Part shown: positions 18,801 through 61,534 of the stretch, piece by piece | Layout: each line of letters opens with the position of its first letter | Numbering within the stretch: position 1 is the stretch's first letter | Source: Solirubrobacterales bacterium | GTDB lineage: Bacteria > Actinomycetota > Thermoleophilia > Solirubrobacterales > 70-9 | Assembly: GCA_023958085.1 (NCBI GenBank) | Contig: JAMLGI010000003.1 | Span: forward strand, 1 to 64,000 | Length of the DNA: 64,000 nt | Reading direction: 5' to 3' | Made by a program: the position numbers and the translations under genes | The notes under the pieces: generated by a model | Told to the model about the DNA's origin: nothing | Seen by the model: the letters and a program-made list of their open reading frames with translations, nothing else | Databases searched by the model: none

Positions 18801-19275
18801 CGGCGGCAAGGGCGGCTTCTGGCTCGGAGGCAAGGTCAAGGTGGCCGGCACCACCGGCCCGGGCAAGACCCCGCAGCCGACCGCCAGCACCGCCGTGTTC
18901 GACGGCAAGCGGCTGCATGTACGGCTCAAGTGCGGGCCGCAGTACCGCCCGAGCTGCAACATGACCGCGGCCCCGGTGACCGGCAAGGACCGCAAGGTCA
19001 AGAAGGTCCGCAAGGGCAGGAAGACCGTGAAGGTCATCAAGGGCAAGCCGATGGCCAAACCGCTCCGGAAGAAGATCAAGGCCGGCAAGTGGATCAAGGT
19101 CACCTTCCTGATCAAGCCGAAGTACCGGGCGAAGGTCAGGGCGATGTCGAAAAAGAAGAGCAAGCAGCTCTACGTCCAGCAGAAGATCCGCTCGAAGAAG
19201 ATCGGCAGGAAGAAGTTCAAGGGCAAGAAGCCCCGGATCGTCTACCACCGGTACAAGGTGCGATCCGCCGGCTGA
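15853..19275 (+). CDS. Secreted multidomain protein A1 (beta-sandwich, PKD-like, Big_9, Lys-rich tail)
   Basis: A 1140-aa exported protein. The signal peptide covers about 1-39 (hydrophobic core 18-33, cleavage near ADA/A). A beta-rich domain at about 45-235 contains a CysxxGSP and paired Cys. Ig-like segments follow, then a PKD-like part with WDLDGD near 596, and a Big_9/cadherin-like domain at about 675-766. A second domain at about 784-1000 resembles the N-terminal one. Residues 1013-1140 form a Lys/Arg-rich module (FDGKRLHVRLKCG to YHRYKVRSAG) with a Cys pair. There is no LPXTG or SLH anchor. The ATG at 15853 follows GGGGGAAAG. First of three tandem paralogues, with its own terminator. 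Function unknown; surface adhesin or structural protein is inferred. Confidence 0.85.
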   Translation: MRDTRVFARFTGRWTSSAMLVAFLVVGAVLIGFSSPADAADPVVNPGSNFKATVSGGQLKVNTKLDLDVGTMSPAPRIDDITVDANGNLSAAATSFVFPQQVMQVDTPIGSKDIFINIRAKDPITGTIDPETGEVHINTSLTIQLTSNDNIVALGNNCYVGSPSSPIPFSATALPDDSKGIHYDQYSGETTVVDDTIAIPAASGCPTILGNNVNDIVNSELGLPSASGQNVVRFALRFNPAPHGPTWIDPNGPGHIDPVIVNDTKVQTKPGLEQRSWLESFAISNGTTAGRNGNTVRVSLLVKHDPGRSVTGLKIDDDWNGSEDSTAKPVKPVTTQQPVVQGGFNYSRVSFSYLAPQAGMNIACDPNIFAAVGDMSVTRDISVRAVLDDATESEASATKVRIVREDCNNHRDIPMIYDQVQNTPTPVGGFKPGDTINFGFKGDDTDGNTATYSNRFAGFNYRFRNLDTGQIAGAGAYCAPGNDNQDGVAQSVNSGNATAPARGRWVMEAELLSRPYPLGNGCIFESNPDDGGWGDGSRHWLWIGAIDVNSPQESGGDFSPSVTLNVPARPGVDGSLPVSVATSDSFDALAGGKTSWIEWDLDGDNLNGVDGFETARLGDSRTGMSPGQNQILLDTSAKSPGIYPVRVRVGDNGALGGADDIRRTTVSDTKSYMVNTPPTAQDLSVTTEYGKSVATPLVAGDTNADNSHDPLTWSLVNPPAHGYLAGEWPNRSYHPDGGFSGPDSFTYRVNDGFGGSATATVSITVQAKPADPVDPEPDPDNPKRDHLEAAFPEGRMNLNEAGGPSTSGIKVVDSAINDAPVTFKTEYWNSQTGEINAPASDFSFPSKSVQLSVTEPIPLDLDVKIEFGALGNITGNYNQTTGAMRLNLNAHALITITAGGGNIQVMTCDVTPIPLSFISNGADLVDPGETGKRPPKNWKAAAFSPPARDGAVTSLWNSLPASTPLSEPLKPTASCGGTLDAMIGGKGGFWLGGKVKVAGTTGPGKTPQPTASTAVFDGKRLHVRLKCGPQYRPSCNMTAAPVTGKDRKVKKVRKGRKTVKVIKGKPMAKPLRKKIKAGKWIKVTFLIKPKYRAKVRAMSKKKSKQLYVQQKIRSKKIGRKKFKGKKPRIVYHRYKVRSAG

Positions 19276-22500: not shown

Positions 22501-23186
22501 AGGGAGCGCCGATCAACCGGCCGGCCCACAACTGGGAGGCCGCCCTCTTCCAGGCTCAGGGCAACAACCCGCCGGAAGGCGCGGTAACCAACCTGTGGAA
22601 CTCGCTGCCGGCCTCAACCGCGATCAACCAGGCGCTCCCGGATGTGGCCACCTGCGCCGACACTCTGGATCCGATGCTCGGCGGCAAGGGCGGGCTCTGG
22701 CTCGGCGGGAAGGTGACGTTCGACGCCACCGAAGAACCGGTTGGACCCACCGGCCCGACCGGCCCCACCGGCCCGACGAGTCCGACCGGCCCGACCGGTC
22801 CGCCGGTTCAGCCGGTTGATCCGGGCAAGCTGGTCACCAACACGACCGGTGTGTTCGACGGCAAGCGGCTCCACATCCGGCTCAAGTGCGGACCGCAGTA
22901 CCGGCCGAGCTGCAACATGAGTGCGGTACCGGTGACCAGGAAGGGCAAGAAGGGCAAGCCGATGGCCAAACCGCTCCGCAAGAAAATCAAGGCCGGCAAG
23001 TGGATCAAGGTCACCTTCCTGATCAAGCCGAAATACCGGGCGACACTCACCGCGATGTCGAAAAAGAAGAGCAAACAGCTCTACGTCCAGCAGAAGGTGA
23101 AGTCGAAGAAGCTCGGACGGAAGAAGTTCAAGGGCAAGAAACCGCGGATCGTCTACCACCGCTACAAGGTGCGCTCCACCGGCTGA
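19575..23186 (+). CDS. Secreted multidomain protein A2 (as A1, with an InlB-like repeat and GPT linker)
   Basis: A 1203-aa paralogue of A1. Signal peptide about 1-38 (ASAADAA cleavage region), N-terminal beta domain, Ig/PKD-like centre (WDLDGD near 572) and Big_9 domain about 652-743. Unlike A1 and A3, a divergent InlB-type repeat (about 745-830; GRVTSSPAGIDCG, then FTGWSGGGC) is inserted before the second beta domain (833-1052). A collagen-like Gly-Pro-Thr linker (1057-1078) then leads to the Lys-rich module 1091-1203, where the variable basic stretch after PVT is shorter. The ATG at 19575 is chosen from the signal peptide and alignment with A1; GAGAGGA lies 12 bases upstream. Function unknown. 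Confidence 0.85.
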   Translation: MDDTRTLARFSAFTGPLAALIALFLIGIATLASASAADAAVVANPDKSPFKATIGGGQLKVNTKLDMDIGTMSPSPTLENVILDADGNLSAPAAGLKFPKQVMQVSTPVGTKDIFIDIRANDPITGTLDPSTGEVHINTNLVIQLTSNDSIVALGSNCYVGSPSNPIPFHASALPDDSKGVHYDQYTAEATVVDDTLTIPAASGCPTILGNNVNTIVNGELNLPSASGQNVVRLAMRFRQQAPRGENWVDPNGPGHIDPVIVNDQTVNIPGIGDMRSWLESFTLTDTSMRAGGNTLRLSLLVQHDPGLTVTGIKLDDDWNSSEDSDSKGIKSVTAQQPVVHDGYNYSRVTWEGIVNHSTMGVSGMWRLADVSVRAVLSDNSQTEASSSKIGLTRGQDGELFGTNDAPSIYAWAPQSDTAVTPGTNVTFKFTGDDADGGLISPRDFGGVYWRWRNVDTGSVTGTTKRCVGGNQDNAQQTLTLPAPNRGRWVLEASLANTDNSCNYIEFPGLYFYLGAIDVNSPQELSGDNSPAVTLNVPARPEVDGSLPISVITSDPFDSNPGPLARPGRVQSIEWDLDGDATNTPAAPDGFEEVRLGDWRTGMGPGQKQVLLDTSNLAPGIYPVRVRAGDNGALGGADNIRRTTIDSGSYMVNTPPVTQNEQVTTDTRTAVPVTVTASDTNADNSHDPLTWSLKTAPDHGFVSGNWPSVTYHPDGSFVGTDSFEFQVSDGFGGIATGTVEVTVEQRHFMLSVNRAGEGDGRVTSSPAGIDCGQSCQAEYSSSDTVTLTAIEGNNSTFTGWSGGGCTGTGTCDVAMDQARAVTATFDRAGPTGPGYLRVAFEEGRMNLNENAGPSTSGVKVVDSTVPDVPVVFRTDSWDRDTGAINAPASGLVFPAKTLQLNAGGFDVDAKIEFSALGNITGNYNQGSGALNLDMNVRVRITVTVPALGGLEALKCDVTPIPLQLSTGGSPLVDPGEGAPINRPAHNWEAALFQAQGNNPPEGAVTNLWNSLPASTAINQALPDVATCADTLDPMLGGKGGLWLGGKVTFDATEEPVGPTGPTGPTGPTSPTGPTGPPVQPVDPGKLVTNTTGVFDGKRLHIRLKCGPQYRPSCNMSAVPVTRKGKKGKPMAKPLRKKIKAGKWIKVTFLIKPKYRATLTAMSKKKSKQLYVQQKVKSKKLGRKKFKGKKPRIVYHRYKVRSTG
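22743..22808 (+). repeat. Gly-Pro-Thr collagen-like linker in A2
   Basis: Encodes four GPT triplets, one SPT, one GPT and GPPV. The same 22-residue string, with SPT at the same place, is encoded in protein B2 at 59108-59173, with different synonymous codons. Confidence 0.9.
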
Positions 23187-26300: not shown

Positions 26301-26820
26301 GGCGCCGACCGCGAGTTGCGGTGGCACGCTGGACAGCCTGATCGGTGGCAAGGGCGGCTTCTGGCTCGGTGGCAAGGTCAGCGTTGCCGGCAGCACAAAC
26401 CCCGACCCGCCGAACGGAAGCACCGTGATTTTCGACGGCAAGCGGCTCCATCTTCGCCTCAAGTGCGGTCCCCAGTACCGGCCGGCATGCAACATGGTTG
26501 CCGTCCCGGTAACGGCGAAGGACCGGAAGACCGTCAGGAAAATCAAGCGCGGCAAGAAGGTGAAGCGGATCGTGAAGATCAGGAAGGGCAAGCCGATGGC
26601 CAGACCGCTCCGGAAGAAGATCAAGGCCGGCAAGTGGATCAGGGCCAGCTTCCTGATCAAGCCGCAGTACCGGGCGAAGGTGCTGGCGATGTCGAGAAAG
26701 AAGAGCAAACAGCTCTACGTCCAGCAGAAGGTGAAATCGAAGAAGCTCGGCAAGAAGAAGTTCAAGGGCAAGAAACCGCGGATCGTCTACCACCGCTACA
26801 GGGTGCGATCCGCCGGCTGA
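23383..26820 (+). CDS. Secreted multidomain protein A3 (beta-sandwich, PKD-like, Big_9, Lys-rich tail)
   Basis: A 1145-aa paralogue of A1 with the same order of parts. Signal peptide about 1-36 (hydrophobic core MLILILAGFAGLGF, ending AAQA), N-terminal beta domain, Ig/PKD-like centre with WDLDGD, Big_9 domain about 677-767, second beta domain about 788-1003, and Lys-rich module 1014-1145. The basic module keeps LKCGPQYRPAC and ends YHRYRVRSAG; its variable stretch is the longest of the A set. The ATG at 23383 has GGAGGG 9 bases upstream; an in-frame TTG at 23374 is too close to that site. It is followed by the shared terminator. Function unknown; surface role inferred. Confidence 0.85.
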   Translation: MNGQRRIAARGPRIAMLILILAGFAGLGFTSAAQADLVANPGNSFAATVTGGELKVGSDLDPIDVAEMSPSPRLRNVTVNADGTLTAAPEDFVFPQLTLSIDTPIGKKDIFIQLRAAQPVTGSIDPVTGATELHTALTIQLTSNDSLIALGNNCYVGTPSNPIQFNAYAAADDSKGVHYDQYSGEVQLIEDTLEIPAATGCPTILGQNVNEIANTQLGLPSPSGNNLIRLEMRFKAPTPHSEDWIDPEGPGHIDPVIVNDTEVTNSSGTYRSWLESLAITNNTRYDSFDNLLQGVTYQTGRKGNTVRISLLVKHDPGRSVTGLKIDDDWNATDDSDGATAKVVSSIQPVVQGGFNYSRITFDYLAPTAGMGVTCPNAASGNGPGTNRRVTKISVRAVLDNDTESNSSQSDIAISREDCDASRPDGAMFYGWEPQVPGPVTAVTPGTPVTFKFRGVDTDTIGSPLEFGGFNFRFRNLDTGQVSSFPNPTCTASNQDDHVQTLNLNAPGRGRWVLEGEPLSHPEGLFDPKNCSRREFADYWYWIGAIDVNSPQELSGTYSPEVTLNVPARPGVDGSLPISVETRDALDLNPGPSAAQGKTQLIEWDLDGDDTNGVDGFETTRLGDSETGMGPGQNQRLIDTSEMEPGIYPVRVRVGDNGALGAADEIRRTTVSDTKTYMVNTPPSANGLSVTTDYGKSVATPLVAADTNADSSHDPLTWTMITPPAHGYLAGEWPNRVFHPDSGYSGPDSFTYRVDDGFGGSATATVSITVKAKPADPVDPGPDPDNPKRDHLKASFPEGRMNLNEAGGPSTSGVKVVDSAVPDPPVVFETDHWNKTTGEINAPATDLKFPSKSVQMSVTDPIPLDLDVKIEFGAIGNITGNYSQSTGAMKLNFNAHALITITAGGGNLRVMTCDVTPIPLAFSSAGADLVDPGETGKRPARNWKAKAFSPPSRDGAITSLWNSLPASKGISEPMAPTASCGGTLDSLIGGKGGFWLGGKVSVAGSTNPDPPNGSTVIFDGKRLHLRLKCGPQYRPACNMVAVPVTAKDRKTVRKIKRGKKVKRIVKIRKGKPMARPLRKKIKAGKWIRASFLIKPQYRAKVLAMSRKKSKQLYVQQKVKSKKLGKKKFKGKKPRIVYHRYRVRSAG

Positions 26821-52627: not shown

Positions 52628-53380
52628 ATGAGCAAGGCGACGCTTTTCAGTCTTCCCGGTTCCCATCCCGCCCGGGCCGCGGCGATGATGCTGGACTTCA
52701 AGGGGATCGAGTACCGCAAGGTTGATCTGCTGCCGGTCGCACACAAGGCGATCGTCCGGCTGGCGGGTTTCAAAGGTTCGACCGTGCCCGCCCTGAAGTT
52801 CAACGGCGAGAAGGTGATCGGTTCGATCGAGATCGCCCGGGCCCTGGACCGCCTGGTGCCGGAACCACCGCTGCTTCCCGGCGACGAGGAGCTGCGATCC
52901 GAGGTACTGAAGGCGGAAGCCTTCGGTGAGTCCGAACTTCAGGACGCGACGCGCCGGATCCTCTGGAACACGGTGCGACGCAAACCCCGTTCGATCGCCA
53001 CCTTCCTCGAAGGGTCCACCCTGCCGCTGCCGCCAAAGGTGGCCGAGTTCACCAGCGGACCGATCATCCTCGGCGAGTACCGGATCAACGACTCCGGGGA
53101 CGAGAACGTGATCGCCGACCTGGCGGCCCTGCCGGGCTGGCTGGATCGGATGGACAGCTGGGTCGAGGCAGGAGTGCTCGGGGGCGAGAACCCGAATGCG
53201 GCCGACTTCCAGGTGCTGACCTCGGTTCAGCTCCTGATGCGGCTCCGGGACCTGCGTCCGCACATCGAAACCCGCCCGATCGGCGAGGCGGCGAAAAGGC
53301 TGATCCCGGACTATCCGGGGGACGTTCCGCCGGCCTTGCCGGCAGAGTGGCTGGAACCGCTTGCGGGGTCAGGACAGTAG
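52628..53380 (+). CDS. Glutathione S-transferase-like protein
   Basis: A 250-aa protein with a thioredoxin-like N-terminal domain (LFSLPGSHPARAAAMMLDFKGIEY, then cis-Pro segment STVPALKFNGEKVIGSIEIARAL) and an all-helical C-terminal domain ending in LRPHIETRPIGEAAKRL. This is the GST fold. Actinobacteria usually use mycothiol rather than glutathione, so the thiol cofactor is uncertain. ATG at 52628. It converges with the ferredoxin-reductase-like gene with a 12-base overlap. Confidence 0.78.
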   Translation: MSKATLFSLPGSHPARAAAMMLDFKGIEYRKVDLLPVAHKAIVRLAGFKGSTVPALKFNGEKVIGSIEIARALDRLVPEPPLLPGDEELRSEVLKAEAFGESELQDATRRILWNTVRRKPRSIATFLEGSTLPLPPKVAEFTSGPIILGEYRINDSGDENVIADLAALPGWLDRMDSWVEAGVLGGENPNAADFQVLTSVQLLMRLRDLRPHIETRPIGEAAKRLIPDYPGDVPPALPAEWLEPLAGSGQ

Positions 53381-54589
53381 CGAGGTCAGATCGGTGTCCG
53401 GGTCGGCAAGGGCCTTCCGATCGACCTCGACCCGGGCCTTGATCAGCTCCTTGATCGGATCGCTCACGTCCCAGATGTTCACGTTCATTCCGGCGGCGAT
53501 CCGGTTGTCCTGGAGCCAGAAAGCGATGAACTCGCGGGCGTCGGTGTCGCCGCGGATCACCACTTCATCCTCCCCGGAGGCGTAGCCGACGTACTCCATG
53601 CCGACGTCGTACTGGTCGGAGAAGAAGTACGGAATCTCGTCGTAGGAGACCTCCTCCCCGGCCAGCGCCCGTCCGGCGGCGGGACCCTGTTTCATCGCGT
53701 TGTTCCAGTGTTCAACCCGGATCCGTCGCTCGTAGAACGGGTGGTAGGCGTTGGCGACGTCACCGGCCGCATATACCCCGGGAACATTGGTCTGAAGTGA
53801 GGCGTTGGTGAGGATGCCGTTCTCGCATGCGACCCCCATCTCTTCGGCCAGGGAGGTCCGCGGGATCACCCCGATCCCGACCACCACCAGGTCGGCCTCG
53901 ACCGTTCTGCCGTCACTGGTCCGGACCCGTTCGACCCGTTCGGAACCCTCGAAGGCCTCCACCCCGGTCCCGAGCATCATCTGGACCCCCTGATCGAGGT
54001 GGACGTCGCGGTAGATCCCGCCCATCTGTTTGCCCAGCACCCGTTCCAGCGGCACCTCGGCCGGTTCGATCACGGTGACCTCGCAGCCTTTCTGGCGGGC
54101 CGAGGCGGCGACCTCGGAGCCGATCCAGCCGGCCCCGACCACCACCACCCGGGCGGAGCCGCCCTGGATTGCGGCGCCGAGCGAGTCCGAACTTTCGAGA
54201 GTTCGCAGATAGTGAACCCCGGTCAGGTCATGCCCGGGGATCCCGATCCGGCGCGGTTCGGCGCCGGTGGCGAAAAGCAGCCTGTCCCAGGGGACCGGAT
54301 CGGCACCGTCGACCACCACCCGGGACTCGTCCGGATCGATCGCGGTGACCCTGTGCCCGGTCAGCAGCTCGACGTTGTGCTCGTCGTACCAGCCGGCGTC
54401 ATGGACCCAGGGAGCGTCGTCGCGCTCCCCCCGCAGGTAGGCCTTCGAAAGGGGCGGGCGTTCATAGGGACGGTGGGGTTCGTCCCCGATCAGCACGACC
54501 CGGTTCTCGTTGCCGGTTTCGCGCAGTGCCTCGACCGCCTTTGCCGCCGTCAGTCCGGCACCCACCACCACAATCGTCTCGTCAGCCAT
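53369..54589 (-). CDS. FAD-dependent NAD(P)H oxidoreductase (ferredoxin reductase-like)
   Basis: A 406-aa two-dinucleotide-binding flavoprotein. The FAD motif is VVVGAGLTAAKAVEAL at the start, the NAD(P) motif VVVVGAGWIGSEVA near 165-178, and the second FAD signature YAAGDVANAYHPFY near 300. A reductase_C-type tail follows (about 315-400). It resembles reductases of [2Fe-2S] ferredoxins that feed P450s or dioxygenases, but no partner is in the window. ATG at 54589 with AGGAGACGG just upstream. Confidence 0.9.
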   Translation of the reverse strand: MADETIVVVGAGLTAAKAVEALRETGNENRVVLIGDEPHRPYERPPLSKAYLRGERDDAPWVHDAGWYDEHNVELLTGHRVTAIDPDESRVVVDGADPVPWDRLLFATGAEPRRIGIPGHDLTGVHYLRTLESSDSLGAAIQGGSARVVVVGAGWIGSEVAASARQKGCEVTVIEPAEVPLERVLGKQMGGIYRDVHLDQGVQMMLGTGVEAFEGSERVERVRTSDGRTVEADLVVVGIGVIPRTSLAEEMGVACENGILTNASLQTNVPGVYAAGDVANAYHPFYERRIRVEHWNNAMKQGPAAGRALAGEEVSYDEIPYFFSDQYDVGMEYVGYASGEDEVVIRGDTDAREFIAFWLQDNRIAAGMNVNIWDVSDPIKELIKARVEVDRKALADPDTDLTSLLS

Positions 54590-54725
54590 CGTCCGTCTCC
54601 TGAGTTTCGGTTGGTCGGCTCTGAGCGGTGACGTCCAGGGTTTCTTTCCCGGGAGTCGATGTTCCGCCCATCCGCCTACACCGTATGCGTACCCGGAAAT
54701 CGGTTTCTTACCGAACCCGTCCGTC

Positions 54726-54857
54726 GGCACCCCGATTGACCTCTCCCCTACCGGAGAGAGTGTGATCAACACCGCTGTCTTCGACGGCACGAAGCGCTTC
54801 AGGGGCAAGAGCCCGAGAGTCATCTACCGAAGCTTCCGGGTTCAGGGCACCGGATGA
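54726..54857 (+). pseudogene. Remnant of a B-type secreted gene with an internally deleted Lys-rich module
   Basis: One frame reads GTPIDLSPTGES (like the FGTPVDLSAPGE phrase of the propeller repeat), then VINTAVFDG (first residues of the Lys-rich module), and then directly the module's last residues in diverged form (RFRGKSPRVIYRSFRVQGTG, then stop). About 80-100 residues of the module's middle are missing, along with the InlB repeat and everything upstream. It has no start or signal peptide. A deletion-decayed paralogue of B2/B3 is the simplest reading. Confidence 0.7.
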
Positions 54858-54921
54858 CCCCCGGCAGGAGGCGATCGGGAATCGGGCAGGGTCGGGGTTG
54901 GATCCGATTTCGGGAACCCGC

Positions 54922-54992: not shown

Positions 54993-57203
54993 GTGTTGAG
55001 CATCGGACAGATCCATCGACCGGCCATTACCGGAGGTCCGAGCGTCCGGCCGGTATGTAGCTGCTTGAACCGGTTCGTCGGCCTGGCGGTAGCGGTTCTC
55101 ACGATCCTCTTGCTGTCGGTCTGGACGCCGACCCGGGCTGCAGCGATCCCCCCGGGGCCGTGGGTCTTGCCGGCGAGCGATCTCTCCTCGGTCCAGCCGG
55201 CCACCTACCCCCAGATCGCCTTCGGCCCGGATGGCAGCGCGACCGCGGTGTGGCTCTACCAGGGTCAGGGCATCCAGGCTGCGACCCGGCCACCGGGTGG
55301 CAGCTTCGGAACCCCTCAGGATCTGGTCGCCGTCGGGTTCAATGCCCAGACTCCCCAGGTCGGGATCGGAGCGGACGGCACCACCGTCGCCGTCTGGTCA
55401 CGCAGCAACGGCAGTAACTACGTCATCGAGGCCGCAACCCGACCGCCCGGCGGCAGCTTCGGGCCACCCGAAAGCCTTTCCGCGGCAGGCCAGACCGCCA
55501 ACCAACCGCAGGTTGCGGTCGGACCGGATGGCACCACGATCGTGATCTGGGGACGGTTCAACGGCAGCAACAACATCATCCAGGCCACGGTCCGACCACC
55601 GGGCGGGAACTTCGGGACACCGGTTGATCTCTCGGCGGTCGGAGCGAGCGCCGACGGTCCACAGATCGCCATCCTGCCCGACGGCAGCGCAACTGCCGTC
55701 TGGGGCAGGGGCATGAATGCAGCCGCCCGGATCCAGGCGTCAACCCGTCCGGCCGGCGGCACTTTCGGGCCGTCAACCGACCTCTCGGACCCGGGCCTCG
55801 GTGCGTTCGGACCCCAAATCGGGGTCGCCGCAGACGGCGAGACCACGGTTTCCTGGAGTGGTCACCATGGCGGCATCTGGACGATCCGGGCCGCGATCCG
55901 TCCGCCCGGCGGGAGCTTCGGATCACCGATCGATATCTCCGGCACAGACCAGGGGTGGTTTGCCGACGTCGCGGTCACCCCGGACGGCGGCACCTCGATC
56001 GACTGGTCCGGGTACGACCCGGTCACCAACAAGGCGGTTGTCCGGGCGGCGGTCCGCCCTCCCGGCGGCAGCTTTGCGCCGCCGGCCGATCTCACCGCGC
56101 CGGACCAGGACGTCCAGGCCAACACGGTCAGGGTCGGCGCCGCACCGGACGGCACCTCGACCGCCATCTGGTCCCGCTCCGACGGAAGCAACGACATCGT
56201 CCAGACCTCGACCCGGCCGCCAAGCGGGAGCTTCGGGCCACCGGTCGACCTGTCGGCGCCCGGACAGAACGCCGAGAGCCCCCAGATCGCCTTTGCCCCG
56301 GACGACACCGGAATCGGCACCGCGATCTGGAGCCGACATGACGGTGGCAAGTTCGTAACCCAGGCCGCCTCCACCACCACACCGAACCTTCATCTCACCG
56401 TCGGCCGGGCCGGAAACGGTGAGGGGAGCGTCACCTCCGGTCTCGGCGGCATCGACTGCGGTGCCGTCTGCACCTCGGATCTGCCTGCCTACACCGAGGT
56501 CACCCTGACCGCCAATCCCGGCGGGGGTTCCGCTTTCTCCGGCTGGAGCGGTGCCTGCACCGGCACGCAGCCAGACTGCCTGATCCGGATGGACCAGGCG
56601 CGAAACGTCACCGCCACGTTCGTCGCGACCACCCGTCAGCTCACCGTGAGCCGAACCGGCAGCGGTCAGGGGCTGGTCACCTCGAATGCCGGCGGGATCG
56701 GCTGCGGGACCGTCTGTGCCGCCGCGCTCCCGGCGGGCAGCGAGGTGACCCTGACCGCCATGCCCGCCGAGGGCTCTGTCTTCAGCGGCTGGACCGGGGA
56801 CTGCTCCGGATCCGCGACAACCTGTGTGTTGCGGATGGATGACCCCCGCAGCGTGACCGCAACCTTCACCGCCATCACGAAGCCCCCGGATCCATGCCGG
56901 GCAGCGACGATGAAACTCGGACGAGTGTCCCTGAACCGACGGCGAGGCACCGCCCGGATCACCGCCACCATCGGCGCCCCGGGAAGGCTGACCATCCGGG
57001 GGACCCGGCTGGTCAGGGCGACCAGCCGGTCTGCCCGCCGGGCAGGCCGGTTGAAACTGAACATCCGGACTCGCGGCAGGGCGCTTCGTCAACTTCGACG
57101 CCGGGGGAGTACCCGGGTCCGGGTGGACGTGACCTTCCGGCCGGGCAGTGGCTGCCCCGGCCGGAGCCGGACCAGGACCGTCCGGCTGATCCGGCGCCGC
57201 TGA
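54993..57203 (+). CDS. Secreted propeller-repeat protein B1 with two InlB-like repeats and Arg-rich tail
   Basis: A 736-aa exported protein with a signal peptide at about 1-50 (core FVGLAVAVLTILLLSVW). Eight repeats of about 50 residues follow (65-455; motif PQIAxxPDGTxTAVWxRxxGxNxIxQAxxRPPGGSFGxPxDLSA), likely blades of a beta-propeller. Two divergent InlB-type repeats with Cys pairs (about 465-545 and 548-628) come next. The tail, residues 635-736, is Arg-rich with two Cys and ends TRTVRLIRRR; it differs from the Lys-rich module of B2/B3 but matches the end of B4. GTG at 54993 with AAGGGGA upstream; TTG 54996 is an alternative. Ligand unknown. Confidence 0.82.
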   Translation: MLSIGQIHRPAITGGPSVRPVCSCLNRFVGLAVAVLTILLLSVWTPTRAAAIPPGPWVLPASDLSSVQPATYPQIAFGPDGSATAVWLYQGQGIQAATRPPGGSFGTPQDLVAVGFNAQTPQVGIGADGTTVAVWSRSNGSNYVIEAATRPPGGSFGPPESLSAAGQTANQPQVAVGPDGTTIVIWGRFNGSNNIIQATVRPPGGNFGTPVDLSAVGASADGPQIAILPDGSATAVWGRGMNAAARIQASTRPAGGTFGPSTDLSDPGLGAFGPQIGVAADGETTVSWSGHHGGIWTIRAAIRPPGGSFGSPIDISGTDQGWFADVAVTPDGGTSIDWSGYDPVTNKAVVRAAVRPPGGSFAPPADLTAPDQDVQANTVRVGAAPDGTSTAIWSRSDGSNDIVQTSTRPPSGSFGPPVDLSAPGQNAESPQIAFAPDDTGIGTAIWSRHDGGKFVTQAASTTTPNLHLTVGRAGNGEGSVTSGLGGIDCGAVCTSDLPAYTEVTLTANPGGGSAFSGWSGACTGTQPDCLIRMDQARNVTATFVATTRQLTVSRTGSGQGLVTSNAGGIGCGTVCAAALPAGSEVTLTAMPAEGSVFSGWTGDCSGSATTCVLRMDDPRSVTATFTAITKPPDPCRAATMKLGRVSLNRRRGTARITATIGAPGRLTIRGTRLVRATSRSARRAGRLKLNIRTRGRALRQLRRRGSTRVRVDVTFRPGSGCPGRSRTRTVRLIRRR
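55180..56370 (+). repeat. Eight propeller-like repeats in B1
   Basis: About 150-nt units encoding PQ(I/V)-x4-PDG-x4-W as the core of each blade. The last blade has PDD plus two extra residues before the T-A-x-W, as in the last blades of B2 and B3. Identity between units is moderate, so this array is older or less homogenised than that in B3. Confidence 0.8.
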
Positions 57204-57247: not shown

Positions 57248-57307
57248 TTCTCCCAATCGCATCTAATGGTTCCGCCGATCGGTGGAAGTCCAGACCGGAG
57301 GGTGAAC

Positions 57308-59611
57308 ATGGGACGGCTGAAGCAGGCAGGGCGGGGATCCGCGCGGCAGGGGAGCACCAGACATCTCCCGGAACGAGTGGTTGGCCTTGTGGCGGTTGCA
57401 GCGGCCTTGCTCACCATGTTCACAGCCTCTCTGGCCCAGGCCACGCCGCCGGGGCCGTGGGTCCTGCCTGCGATCGAGATCTCGACCGAAGAGCAGGCCG
57501 GATACCCGGAGCTGGCCTTCGCCCCGGACGGTTCCGCCACCGCGGTCTGGGGAAGCACCGACGGGATCGACGCCACACTTCAGGTCGCCACCAGGCCGCC
57601 GGGCGGGAACTTCGGGACGCCGGTCGAGATCGCGACGGTTGAAGTTGTGGACCCGAACCTCCGGATCTCGATCGAGCCGGACGGCAGCACCGTGATCGTG
57701 TGGCGGCATCAATACAGCATCTCGCCGGACCATTTCAACATCCGGGCTGCGATCCGGCCGGCCGGGGAGAGTGCTTTTGGACCGGCCTTCGACGTTTCAC
57801 CCAGGGACGGGTGGAGCGACTCGTTCCCGATGGTCGGGTCCGGTCCGGATGGCACCACCGTCGTCTGGACCCGGGATGACGGTCTCAACCGGACGATCCA
57901 TTCGGCAACCCGGCCGACCGGCGGGGTCTTCGGAGCCCCGGAAATGATCTCGTACAGCCTGGGGACCTCCGAGGAAGCCCGGATGGCGGTCGGTCCGGAC
58001 GGTACCGATGCGGTTGTCTGGAGGCGCCCGGTTGGAGCCAAGTCGGTCATTCAGGCGGTGACCCGGGCCCCCGGAGAGAGCAGCTGGTCTCCGGCCAACC
58101 TGTCGGAGCCGATCCCGGACTACGACGTGATGAGACCCCGGGTGGCGGTCGGACCGGACGGCACGGTCACCGCGGTCTGGCATCTCGACGATCAGATGTC
58201 GGTGACCGTCCAGTCAGCCACTCTGGATCCGGGCGAGGTGCTCTGGGACCGGACCAACCTGAGCCAGCCCGGACAGCACTCCGGACATGCCTGGGTTGCG
58301 TTCGCACCGGACGGAACTACCACCGCAGTCTGGATCAGGCAGGGCGACGCCGGAACCGTGGTCCAGTCGGCAACCCGACCCCCAGGCGGGAACTTCGGTT
58401 CCCCGGTCCCAGTGTTCACGACCCCCAACGCGACCAACGAGCCGGAAGTCCGGATCGCGTCCGACGGGACTGCCGTCGCCTCCTGGCTGACCGACACCGG
58501 GGGTTTCGACACGGCCTGGGCGGCAACCCGGGAACCCGGCGGAACCACCTGGAACGCCGAGGCCATCTCGGACGCCGGCCTGGAAGTCCTGATGCCCCCC
58601 GACCTGGCCCTCGCCAAGGACGGTTCCGCGACCGCGATCTGGACGGTGGATGACGGAGTGACCAATACGGTTCAGAGCGCGACCCGCCCGGCCGGTGGGG
58701 GTTTCGGCGCGCCGGTGAACCTCTCGCCGTTCGACGCGCAGACCTCGATGTTTCCCCGGATCGCCGCCGCCCCGGATGGCACCGGGATAACCACGGCCCT
58801 CTGGGCCGACGAAGACAACGGCCGCAGCCTCGTCCAGACAGCCTCGACCGCCACTCCGGAGCTTGGGTTGTCCCTGACCAGATCCGGCAGCGGCACGGGG
58901 ACGGTCACCTCCAGCCCGGCCGGCATCGAGTGTGGCTCGACCTGTGAGACGGATCTGCCCGCCTACGCGGAGATCACTCTCACGGCCACTGCCGCCGAGG
59001 GTTCCGCCTTTGCCGGCTGGGGCGGCGCCTGCTCCGGGACCGGCGCGACCTGCCAGCTGCGGATGGATGACGCCAGGAATGTGACCGCGATCTTCACCGA
59101 TACAACCGGTCCGACCGGCCCCACAGGACCCACCGGTCCGACCGGCCCAACGAGCCCGACCGGTCCGACCGGCCCGCCGGTCGATCCGGGTCCGGCCGGA
59201 GTCACCGCCACCACCGCGATCTTCGACGGCAAGCGGCTCCACGTGCGCCTGAAATGCGGCCTGAGGTTCAAGCCGCGCTGCAACACAACCGCGGTCCCGG
59301 TGACAAAGAAGGACCGGAAGGTCACCAGGAAGAGGAAGAAGGGCAAGAAGGTAGTCAAGGTGGTCACGGTGACCAAGGGCAAACCGATGGCCAAACCGAT
59401 CAAGAGGAAGATCAAGGCCGGCAAGTGGATCAAGGTCTCCTTCCTGATCAAGCCGAGCTACCGGGCGGCCCTGTCCGCGATGTCGAAAAAGAAGGGCAAG
59501 ACCCTGCTGGTCCAGCAGAAGATCCGTTCGAAGAAGATCGGCAAGAAGAAGTTCAAGGGCAAGAAACCCCGAACCGTCTATCACCGCTACCGGGTGCGCT
59601 CCACCGGCTGA
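57308..59611 (+). CDS. Secreted propeller-repeat protein B2 with GPT linker and Lys-rich tail
   Basis: A 767-aa exported protein. Signal peptide about 1-39 (VVGLVAVAAALLTMFTASLAQA), then TPPGPWVLPA and about nine propeller-like repeats (50-515). One divergent InlB-type repeat with Cys pairs (about 520-598) follows, then the Gly-Pro-Thr linker (601-622) shared with A2, and the Lys-rich module 636-767 (FDGKRLHVRLKCG ... YHRYRVRSTG). In this module the Cys-flanked segment is GLRFKPRC instead of GPQYRPxC. ATG at 57308 with GGAGGGTG upstream; the frame extends to 57266 without signal. Surface-located; ligand unknown. Confidence 0.83.
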   Translation: MGRLKQAGRGSARQGSTRHLPERVVGLVAVAAALLTMFTASLAQATPPGPWVLPAIEISTEEQAGYPELAFAPDGSATAVWGSTDGIDATLQVATRPPGGNFGTPVEIATVEVVDPNLRISIEPDGSTVIVWRHQYSISPDHFNIRAAIRPAGESAFGPAFDVSPRDGWSDSFPMVGSGPDGTTVVWTRDDGLNRTIHSATRPTGGVFGAPEMISYSLGTSEEARMAVGPDGTDAVVWRRPVGAKSVIQAVTRAPGESSWSPANLSEPIPDYDVMRPRVAVGPDGTVTAVWHLDDQMSVTVQSATLDPGEVLWDRTNLSQPGQHSGHAWVAFAPDGTTTAVWIRQGDAGTVVQSATRPPGGNFGSPVPVFTTPNATNEPEVRIASDGTAVASWLTDTGGFDTAWAATREPGGTTWNAEAISDAGLEVLMPPDLALAKDGSATAIWTVDDGVTNTVQSATRPAGGGFGAPVNLSPFDAQTSMFPRIAAAPDGTGITTALWADEDNGRSLVQTASTATPELGLSLTRSGSGTGTVTSSPAGIECGSTCETDLPAYAEITLTATAAEGSAFAGWGGACSGTGATCQLRMDDARNVTAIFTDTTGPTGPTGPTGPTGPTSPTGPTGPPVDPGPAGVTATTAIFDGKRLHVRLKCGLRFKPRCNTTAVPVTKKDRKVTRKRKKGKKVVKVVTVTKGKPMAKPIKRKIKAGKWIKVSFLIKPSYRAALSAMSKKKGKTLLVQQKIRSKKIGKKKFKGKKPRTVYHRYRVRSTG
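57480..58860 (+). repeat. About nine propeller-like repeats in B2
   Basis: Units of roughly 150 nt with the (A/V)-x5-PDG-x4-V-W core. They are more diverged from each other than in B3, and one unit has KDG in place of PDG. The last unit ends PDGTGITTALW, the same last-blade pattern as in B1 and B3. Confidence 0.75.
59108..59173 (+). repeat. Gly-Pro-Thr collagen-like linker in B2
   Basis: Encodes the same 22-residue GPT/SPT/GPPV string as A2 (22743-22808), with the single Ser substitution in the same triplet. It joins the InlB-like repeat to the Lys-rich module. Confidence 0.9.
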
Positions 59612-59698: not shown

Positions 59699-61534
59699 AT
59701 GAAGTACGACGGAACCGGCCAACCGCGAACGGCGGCCTTGGAGATGAGAGTCCATCGGCGGGTCGGGGGACGTCTGACTACTGCGTCTGCCCTGGGGCTG
59801 CTGACCCTGATTTCCCTCCTGTCGGGAGGCTCCCTGGCGTCAGCGCTCGCACCGGGCCCATGGGTCTCTCCGGCGTCAAACCTTTCGACGCCGGGGCTAG
59901 ACGCTGGCGACCCGCAGCTTGCGGTCGCCCCGGACGGCGCCACCACCGCGGTCTGGTACAGCAGCAGCGGCAGCAACATCGTTCAGGCCGCGACCCGGCC
60001 ACCCGGCGGGAGCTTCGGGACGCCGGTTGACCTCTCCGCAGCCGGGGAGGACGCGCACGACCCGCAGATCGCGGTCTCCCCGGACGGCACCACAACCGTG
60101 ACCTGGCGCCGCTACAACGGCGGCAACTACATCGTTCAGGCCGCGACCCGGCCACCCGGCGGGAGCTTCGGTGCACCATTTGATCTCTCCGCCCCGGGAA
60201 AGAACGCGTTTGACCCGCAGATCGCGGTCTCCCCGGACGGCACCACAACCGCGGTCTGGCGTCGCGACGACGGCAGCAACTACATCATTCAGGCTGTGAT
60301 CAGTCCACCCGGCGGGAGCTTCGGGGTGCCGGTTGATCTCTCTGCCATCGGACGGAACGCGTACAGTCCGCAGATCGCGATCTCCCCGGACGGGACCACG
60401 ACCGCGGTCTGGCGTCGCTACAACGGCAGCGACTACATCACTCAAGCCGCCACCCGGCCGGCCGGCGGGAGCTTCGGGACGCCGGTTGATCTCTCCGCCC
60501 CTGGCGAGGATGCGTTTGACCAACAATTGGTGGCCGCCCCGGACGGGGCCAGCACCGTGGTCTGGCGCCGCTACAACGGCAGCAACTACGTCGTTCAGGC
60601 CACCATCCGGCCGGCCGGCGGGAGCTTCGGGACGCCGGTGGACCTCTCCGCCGCCGGACAGAACGCTTTCTATCCGCAAGTAGCGGCCTTCCCGGACGGC
60701 ACCACCACCGCAGTCTGGCACCGCGACAATGGCGGCAACTACGTCGTTCAGGCCACCATCCGGCCACCCGGCGGGAACTTCGGGATGCCGGTTGATCTCT
60801 CCGCCGCCGGACAGGACGCGGAGGACCCACAGGTGGTGGCAGCTCCGGACGAGACCGGGATCATCACTGCAGTCTGGCAACGCGATGACGGGTCAAACGA
60901 TTCGATTCAGGCAGCATCCACGGTGACCCCGTCCCTGCTCCTCGCGGTTGCCCGGACGGGCAGCGGCCAGGGCGCCGTCGCCTCGGATGTCGGCGGAATC
61001 AACTGCGGTGTGGTCTGTGCGGTCAATCTGGCCGCCTACACCAAGGTCGCTCTGACCGCAACCGCGAAACCGGGCTCCACCTTCACCGGCTGGGGTGGCG
61101 TCTGCTCGGGAACCGAGCCGACCTGCACGATGACCATGAACCAGGCACGGAACGTGACCGCGAAGTTCAGCAAGATCCTCCAGCCCACCGACACCACCGC
61201 GATCTTCGACGGCACCCGGCTTCACATCCGGCTGAAATGCGGTCCGCAGTACCGGCCGAAATGCGTGATGTCCGCCGTACCGGTCACCAGGCAGGGCAGG
61301 AAGGGCAAACCGATGGCCAAACCGGTGAAGAAAAAGATCAAGGCCGGCAAATGGATCAAGGTCAGCTTCCTGATCACGCCGAAATACCGGGCGACGCTCA
61401 CCGCGATGTCGAAGAAGGCGGGCAAGACCGTGTTCGTCCAGCAGAAGATCCGTTCGAAAAAGATCGGCAAGAAGAAGTTCAAGGGCAAGAAACCCCGAAC
61501 CGTCTATCACCGCTACCGGGTGCGCTCCACCTGA
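59699..61534 (+). CDS. Secreted propeller-repeat protein B3 with Lys-rich tail
   Basis: A 611-aa exported protein. The signal peptide is at about 1-50 (core TTASALGLLTLISLLSGGSLASA). Exactly seven repeats of 51 residues follow (about 60-410), each PQ(I/V)AxxPDGTTTAVWRRYNGxNYxVQA..RPPGGSFGxPVDLSAxG; seven is a standard blade number for a closed propeller. One divergent InlB-type repeat (about 418-495) leads to the Lys-rich module 500-611, the shortest form, ending VRST without the final Gly. ATG at 59699; an in-frame ATG at 59744 would shorten the signal region. B3 has the most regular repeats of the B proteins. Ligand unknown. Confidence 0.83.
   Translation: MKYDGTGQPRTAALEMRVHRRVGGRLTTASALGLLTLISLLSGGSLASALAPGPWVSPASNLSTPGLDAGDPQLAVAPDGATTAVWYSSSGSNIVQAATRPPGGSFGTPVDLSAAGEDAHDPQIAVSPDGTTTVTWRRYNGGNYIVQAATRPPGGSFGAPFDLSAPGKNAFDPQIAVSPDGTTTAVWRRDDGSNYIIQAVISPPGGSFGVPVDLSAIGRNAYSPQIAISPDGTTTAVWRRYNGSDYITQAATRPAGGSFGTPVDLSAPGEDAFDQQLVAAPDGASTVVWRRYNGSNYVVQATIRPAGGSFGTPVDLSAAGQNAFYPQVAAFPDGTTTAVWHRDNGGNYVVQATIRPPGGNFGMPVDLSAAGQDAEDPQVVAAPDETGIITAVWQRDDGSNDSIQAASTVTPSLLLAVARTGSGQGAVASDVGGINCGVVCAVNLAAYTKVALTATAKPGSTFTGWGGVCSGTEPTCTMTMNQARNVTAKFSKILQPTDTTAIFDGTRLHIRLKCGPQYRPKCVMSAVPVTRQGRKGKPMAKPVKKKIKAGKWIKVSFLITPKYRATLTAMSKKAGKTVFVQQKIRSKKIGKKKFKGKKPRTVYHRYRVRST
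59867..60920 (+). repeat. Seven tandem 153-nt propeller repeats in B3
   Basis: Units of 153 nt (51 codons). Long stretches are identical between neighbouring units, for example CGCAGATCGCGGTCTCCCC at 60063 and 60216. Such homogeneity points to recent unit duplication or recombination and predicts copy-number variation between strains. Confidence 0.85.

What the first reader, a model, noticed from the sequence alone, without database searches (positions are those of the whole stretch)
54726..54857. Fossil of a B-type gene with the middle of the tail deleted
A 44-residue frame contains the end of a propeller repeat (GTPIDLSPTGES), then the first residues of the Lys-rich module (NTAVFDG), then directly its last 20 or so residues in diverged form. 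The intervening module, InlB repeat, signal peptide and start are absent. It marks an earlier, now collapsed copy and shows that the array gains and loses members. Its retained frame up to the stop suggests recent decay or use as a recombination donor.
Basis: seen in the sequence. Interest (0 to 1): 0.6.

Follow-up and report, generated by a model that had tools for sequence, protein, structure and literature searches.

The report
Collapsed remnant of a tandem gene
A 132-base stretch just upstream of a row of related bacterial surface-protein genes is the leftover of a lost row member, reduced to scraps of its repeat region and tail by internal deletions; it is an ordinary pseudogene remnant that records turnover of the gene row.

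Summary
Window 54726-54857 (+) encodes 43 residues that join three pieces of the neighbouring B genes, collinear and in one frame: part of a propeller repeat (GTPIDLSPTGES), the first residues of the Lys-rich C-terminal module (NTAVFDG) and its last ~22 residues up to the stop. None of the three is a chance match (0 of 3,000 control windows each). The second junction lies on CGGCA, which in intact copies belongs to a short direct repeat (5-10 bp) at the two ends of the module, 261-321 bp apart in the same codon phase. One deletion between such repeats gives the in-frame scar. The remnant sits 135 bp upstream of B1, in the array's orientation, as a lost first member (B0). The orthologous locus in the two relatives where it is contiguous has no B gene. 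Ordinary pseudogene remnant, low interest.

The parts
54711..54759 (+). remnant of a propeller repeat (..PNPSVGTPIDLSPTGES)
   Evidence: 80% DNA identity over 35 nt to B3 60015-60049; protein score 56, 0 of 3000 control windows reach it
54760..54766 (+). first junction, of undetermined parentage (loss of further repeats and the InlB repeat)
   Evidence: no significant match to either side
54767..54790 (+). remnant of the start of the Lys-rich C-terminal module (NTAVFDG)
   Evidence: 87.5% over 24 nt to B3 61192-61215; score 37, 0 of 3000 controls
54785..54789 (+). second junction, CGGCA shared by both parent pieces
   Evidence: overlap of the two DNA matches; intact copies carry CGGCAAG or a shorter, longer or near version at both places, same codon phase, 261-321 bp apart
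54785..54857 (+). remnant of the end of the Lys-rich module with its stop codon; weak similarity continues to about 54869
   Evidence: 67-69% DNA identity to six intact module ends; score 76, control maximum 36
54993..57203 (+). B1, intact propeller gene with two InlB repeats and a different, Arg-rich tail
57266..59611 (+). B2, intact propeller gene with the Lys-rich module
59699..61534 (+). B3, intact propeller gene with the Lys-rich module
53372..54592 (-). FAD-dependent reductase-like gene, left neighbour; part of a conserved order lysS-abh-dus-panK-GST-red-(gap)-folK-folP

Best explanation
It is a pseudogene remnant ('B0') of the first member of a tandem array of secreted propeller-InlB-tail genes. 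Shown: three collinear, same-frame pieces of such a gene, in array orientation and at about array spacing, and a junction on a 5-bp word shared by both ends of the tail module. Inferred: at least two deletions removed the signal peptide, most of the propeller, the InlB repeat and the middle of the tail. The last-named deletion arose by slippage or recombination between short direct repeats (CGGCA/CGGCAAG) in the same codon phase, which is why the frame survives. The lost gene was a divergent paralog rather than a recent twin of B2 or B3, and the scar is now most likely untranslated.
For: Three collinear matches beyond chance. Same-phase direct repeat at the module ends of intact copies and CGGCA at the fossil junction. 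135 bp from the stop to B1, against 62 and 87 bp between B1/B2 and B2/B3. No Pfam or NCBIfam domain left. Long branch of the tail end, 0.39 against at most 0.09 for intact copies. No similar short form in 17 other genomes of the genus. A relative carries a tandem pair of B-type genes, one with a premature stop in its propeller, so losses recur in the family.
Against: The changes in the tail end are more conservative than a neutral simulation gives (P 0.0002-0.013 depending on the parent; 0.011 for the A3 parent when conditioned on detectability). This fits earlier constraint in the living gene but would also fit a constrained short product. The parent sequence at the first junction is unknown. 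The genome is a 31-contig draft without reads on hand.
Confidence: 0.85

Rival explanations
1. A functional small protein or leader derived from the tail, for example from the in-frame GTG at 54762 (31 residues), still under constraint.
For: Open frame; conservative replacements in the tail end; a GGAGAG lies just upstream of the GTG.
Against: The GGAGAG lies only 3 nt from the GTG, too close for a good ribosome site; no signal peptide, although the other module carriers seen are long proteins; the near-invariant His of the module end is lost; no sigma-70-like promoter found; no short counterpart in the genus.
Confidence: 0.07
2. A stray tail fragment that never was a B gene: the module end of another carrier (Ig-type or RCC1-type protein) copied here, with a chance propeller-like or linker-derived front piece.
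For: The tail end is about equally far from the B, Ig-type and RCC1-type carriers; the B2 linker aligns to the front piece plus module start as one block with score 53.
Against: The front piece scores 56 against propeller repeats (control maximum 44) and 35 against the linker; the DNA match is 80% over 35 nt; it lies at the head of a propeller array.
Confidence: 0.06
3. Assembly artefact: an intact gene collapsed by the assembler at repeated tails.
For: Draft assembly in 31 contigs; the tail module is repeated in the genome.
Against: The junction repeat is only 5-7 bp, and the remnant shares no exact run over 13 nt with any copy, too short to confuse an assembler.
Confidence: 0.02

Closest known systems
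Bacterial pseudogene remnants left by deletion between short direct repeats (general knowledge)
   Same: Short word shared at the junction, loss of the intervening DNA, collinear pieces of a paralog left
   Different: Nothing essential; the repeat lies in the same codon phase, so the frame is kept
Truncated copies within tandem surface-protein arrays (general knowledge)
   Same: Same orientation and spacing as intact members, head of the array
   Different: No evidence here that the copy serves as a gene-conversion donor

Membership tests
pseudogene of the B (propeller-InlB-Lys-rich tail) family | significant collinear homology to intact members | tested here: met
pseudogene of the B (propeller-InlB-Lys-rich tail) family | loss of parts needed for the product (signal peptide, most of the propeller, InlB repeat, module core) | tested here: met
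pseudogene of the B (propeller-InlB-Lys-rich tail) family | relaxed selection after the collapse | tested here: inconclusive
   codon-position differences flat at 8/8/7, but replacements conservative
pseudogene of the B (propeller-InlB-Lys-rich tail) family | no transcript or peptide | not testable with these tools
   no expression data
gene-conversion donor cassette | long tracts identical to the expressed copies | tested here: not met
   longest exact match 13 nt
conserved small protein | same short form in relatives | tested here: not met
   no match in 17 other genomes of the genus

The most novel reading that the evidence does not exclude
The scar is a short, still constrained peptide made from the tail module, for instance a free tail that competes for whatever the Lys-rich module binds.
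Probability: 0.04. Interest if true: 0.45.

Novelty: new member of a known kind. Interest (0 to 1): 0.15.

Why it matters
It shows that the array once had at least one more member and how that copy was cut down (a short direct repeat at the ends of the tail module). Its wider value is limited to the history of this genus-restricted family of secreted proteins.

Tried and rejected
(1) Intact ortholog in relatives: the locus is contiguous in G010 and G001 but holds other genes (in G010 a kinase-like gene and others, in both a DUF2855-like gene by my reading of the translation) and no B gene; in several relatives folK lies close to the GST gene without the reductase. (2) A genome-contig scan with B3 found no relative; a scan with a reductase alignment gave 80 loci, none with a tail or propeller match. 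(3) Front piece as B2-type linker instead of propeller repeat: weaker. (4) Recent decay read from the open frame: rejected by the background rate. (5) Conversion donor: rejected by the short exact matches. (6) Promoter or terminator in the scar: none found. (7) Flank similarity to the red-folK region of relatives: only weak background matches. (8) Literature: nothing specific.

Full report
Observation. The plus strand at 54705-54857 reads FLPNPSVGTPIDLSPTGESVINTAVFDGTKRFRGKSPRVIYRSFRVQGTG*. A blastn search with small words against the rest of the window and two further stretches of the same genome finds three pieces in order: 54724-54758 to a propeller repeat of B3 (80% over 35 nt), 54767-54790 to the start of the Lys-rich module (87.5% over 24 nt), and 54785-54869 to the ends of six intact modules (67-69%, best E 6e-7). 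At protein level the pieces score 56, 37 and 76; the best of 3,000 control windows each reached 44, 34 and 36. The three pieces share one frame and the order of an intact gene. The described feature is real.

Alternative for the front piece. In B2 a Pro/Gly/Thr linker precedes the tail, and it aligns with the front piece and the module start as a single block (score 53). That reading would need one deletion fewer. But the front piece alone scores 35 against the linker and 56 against a propeller repeat, with much better DNA identity to the repeat. I keep the propeller reading and leave the first junction (54760-54766) unassigned.

Mechanism. The second junction lies on CGGCA, common to both parent pieces. 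Intact copies carry, at the start and the end of the module, the same-phase words CGGCAAG (B2, A3), CGGCA (B3), CGGCAAGCGG (C1) or a near version (for A1 and A2 the longest shared word in the compared stretches is GGCAAG), 261-321 bp apart. A deletion between such repeats removes a multiple of three, so the open frame to the stop follows from the repeat phase. The open frame is uninformative anyway: 51% of random 150-nt windows of this DNA are open.

Place and history. The remnant lies in the array's orientation, 135 bp before B1 (spacings B1/B2 62 bp, B2/B3 87 bp), so it reads as a former first member. A fourth propeller gene (B4) lies just beyond the window on the other strand, past folP. 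folK-folP is kept, but the gap holds other genes and no B gene. The array is therefore particular to this lineage as far as the held genomes show, and no orthologous scar exists to test selection. No short form was found in 17 other genomes of the genus.

Age and constraint. The last 22 codons differ from the intact modules by 22-25 of 66 nt, whereas intact ones differ by 0-16, and the remnant's branch is the longest (0.39). Differences are spread 8/8/7 over the codon positions, but intact pairs show little bias either, so this has little power. The replacements are more conservative than a neutral simulation predicts (P 0.0002-0.013 by parent; 0.011 for the A3 parent conditioned on detectability). 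The comparison includes divergence that arose in living genes, so the simplest reading is that the lost gene was already a divergent paralog. A constrained short product remains possible but lacks a good start signal, a signal peptide and any counterpart.

Donor idea. The longest exact match between the remnant and any intact copy is 13 nt. B2 and B3, by contrast, are identical over about 71 nt in the same module end while 86% identical over the whole module, the kind of tract that conversion or a recent shared origin leaves. The remnant takes no part in this.

Family context. The Lys-rich module occurs in 9 of 50 genomes of the family searched, all in this genus, at the C-terminus of different long proteins: in this genome propeller, Ig-type and RCC1-type ones. 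In G010 a tandem pair of B-type genes has one member with a premature TAG in the propeller, and in G015 a frame holding only the second part of the module lies downstream of an intact carrier. Loss and truncation of members thus recur.

Verdict. Ordinary pseudogene remnant, well supported. Interest is low.

Noticed in passing
59530-59611 and 61456-61534: B2 and B3 are identical over about 71 nt at the module end although 86% identical over the whole module, which suggests recent gene conversion between them.
   Followed up: partly
18886-19275, 22842-23186, 26419-26820, 59210-59611, 61190-61534: A Lys-rich, genus-restricted C-terminal module is shared by otherwise unrelated secreted proteins (propeller, Ig-type and, on another contig, RCC1-type), with no Pfam or NCBIfam match reported for it; it might be an anchoring or sorting module.
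   Followed up: partly
54993-57203 and L048:3375-5267: B1 and B4 carry another, Arg/Lys-rich tail in place of the Lys-rich module, so the array mixes two tail types.
   Followed up: no
L201:3335-3694: In G015 a short frame holds only the second part of the tail module, downstream of an intact carrier: a second truncated tail in the genus.
   Followed up: partly
L050 (G010:C7, about 345638-346300): A tandem pair of B-type genes in a relative, one with a single premature TAG in its propeller.
   Followed up: partly
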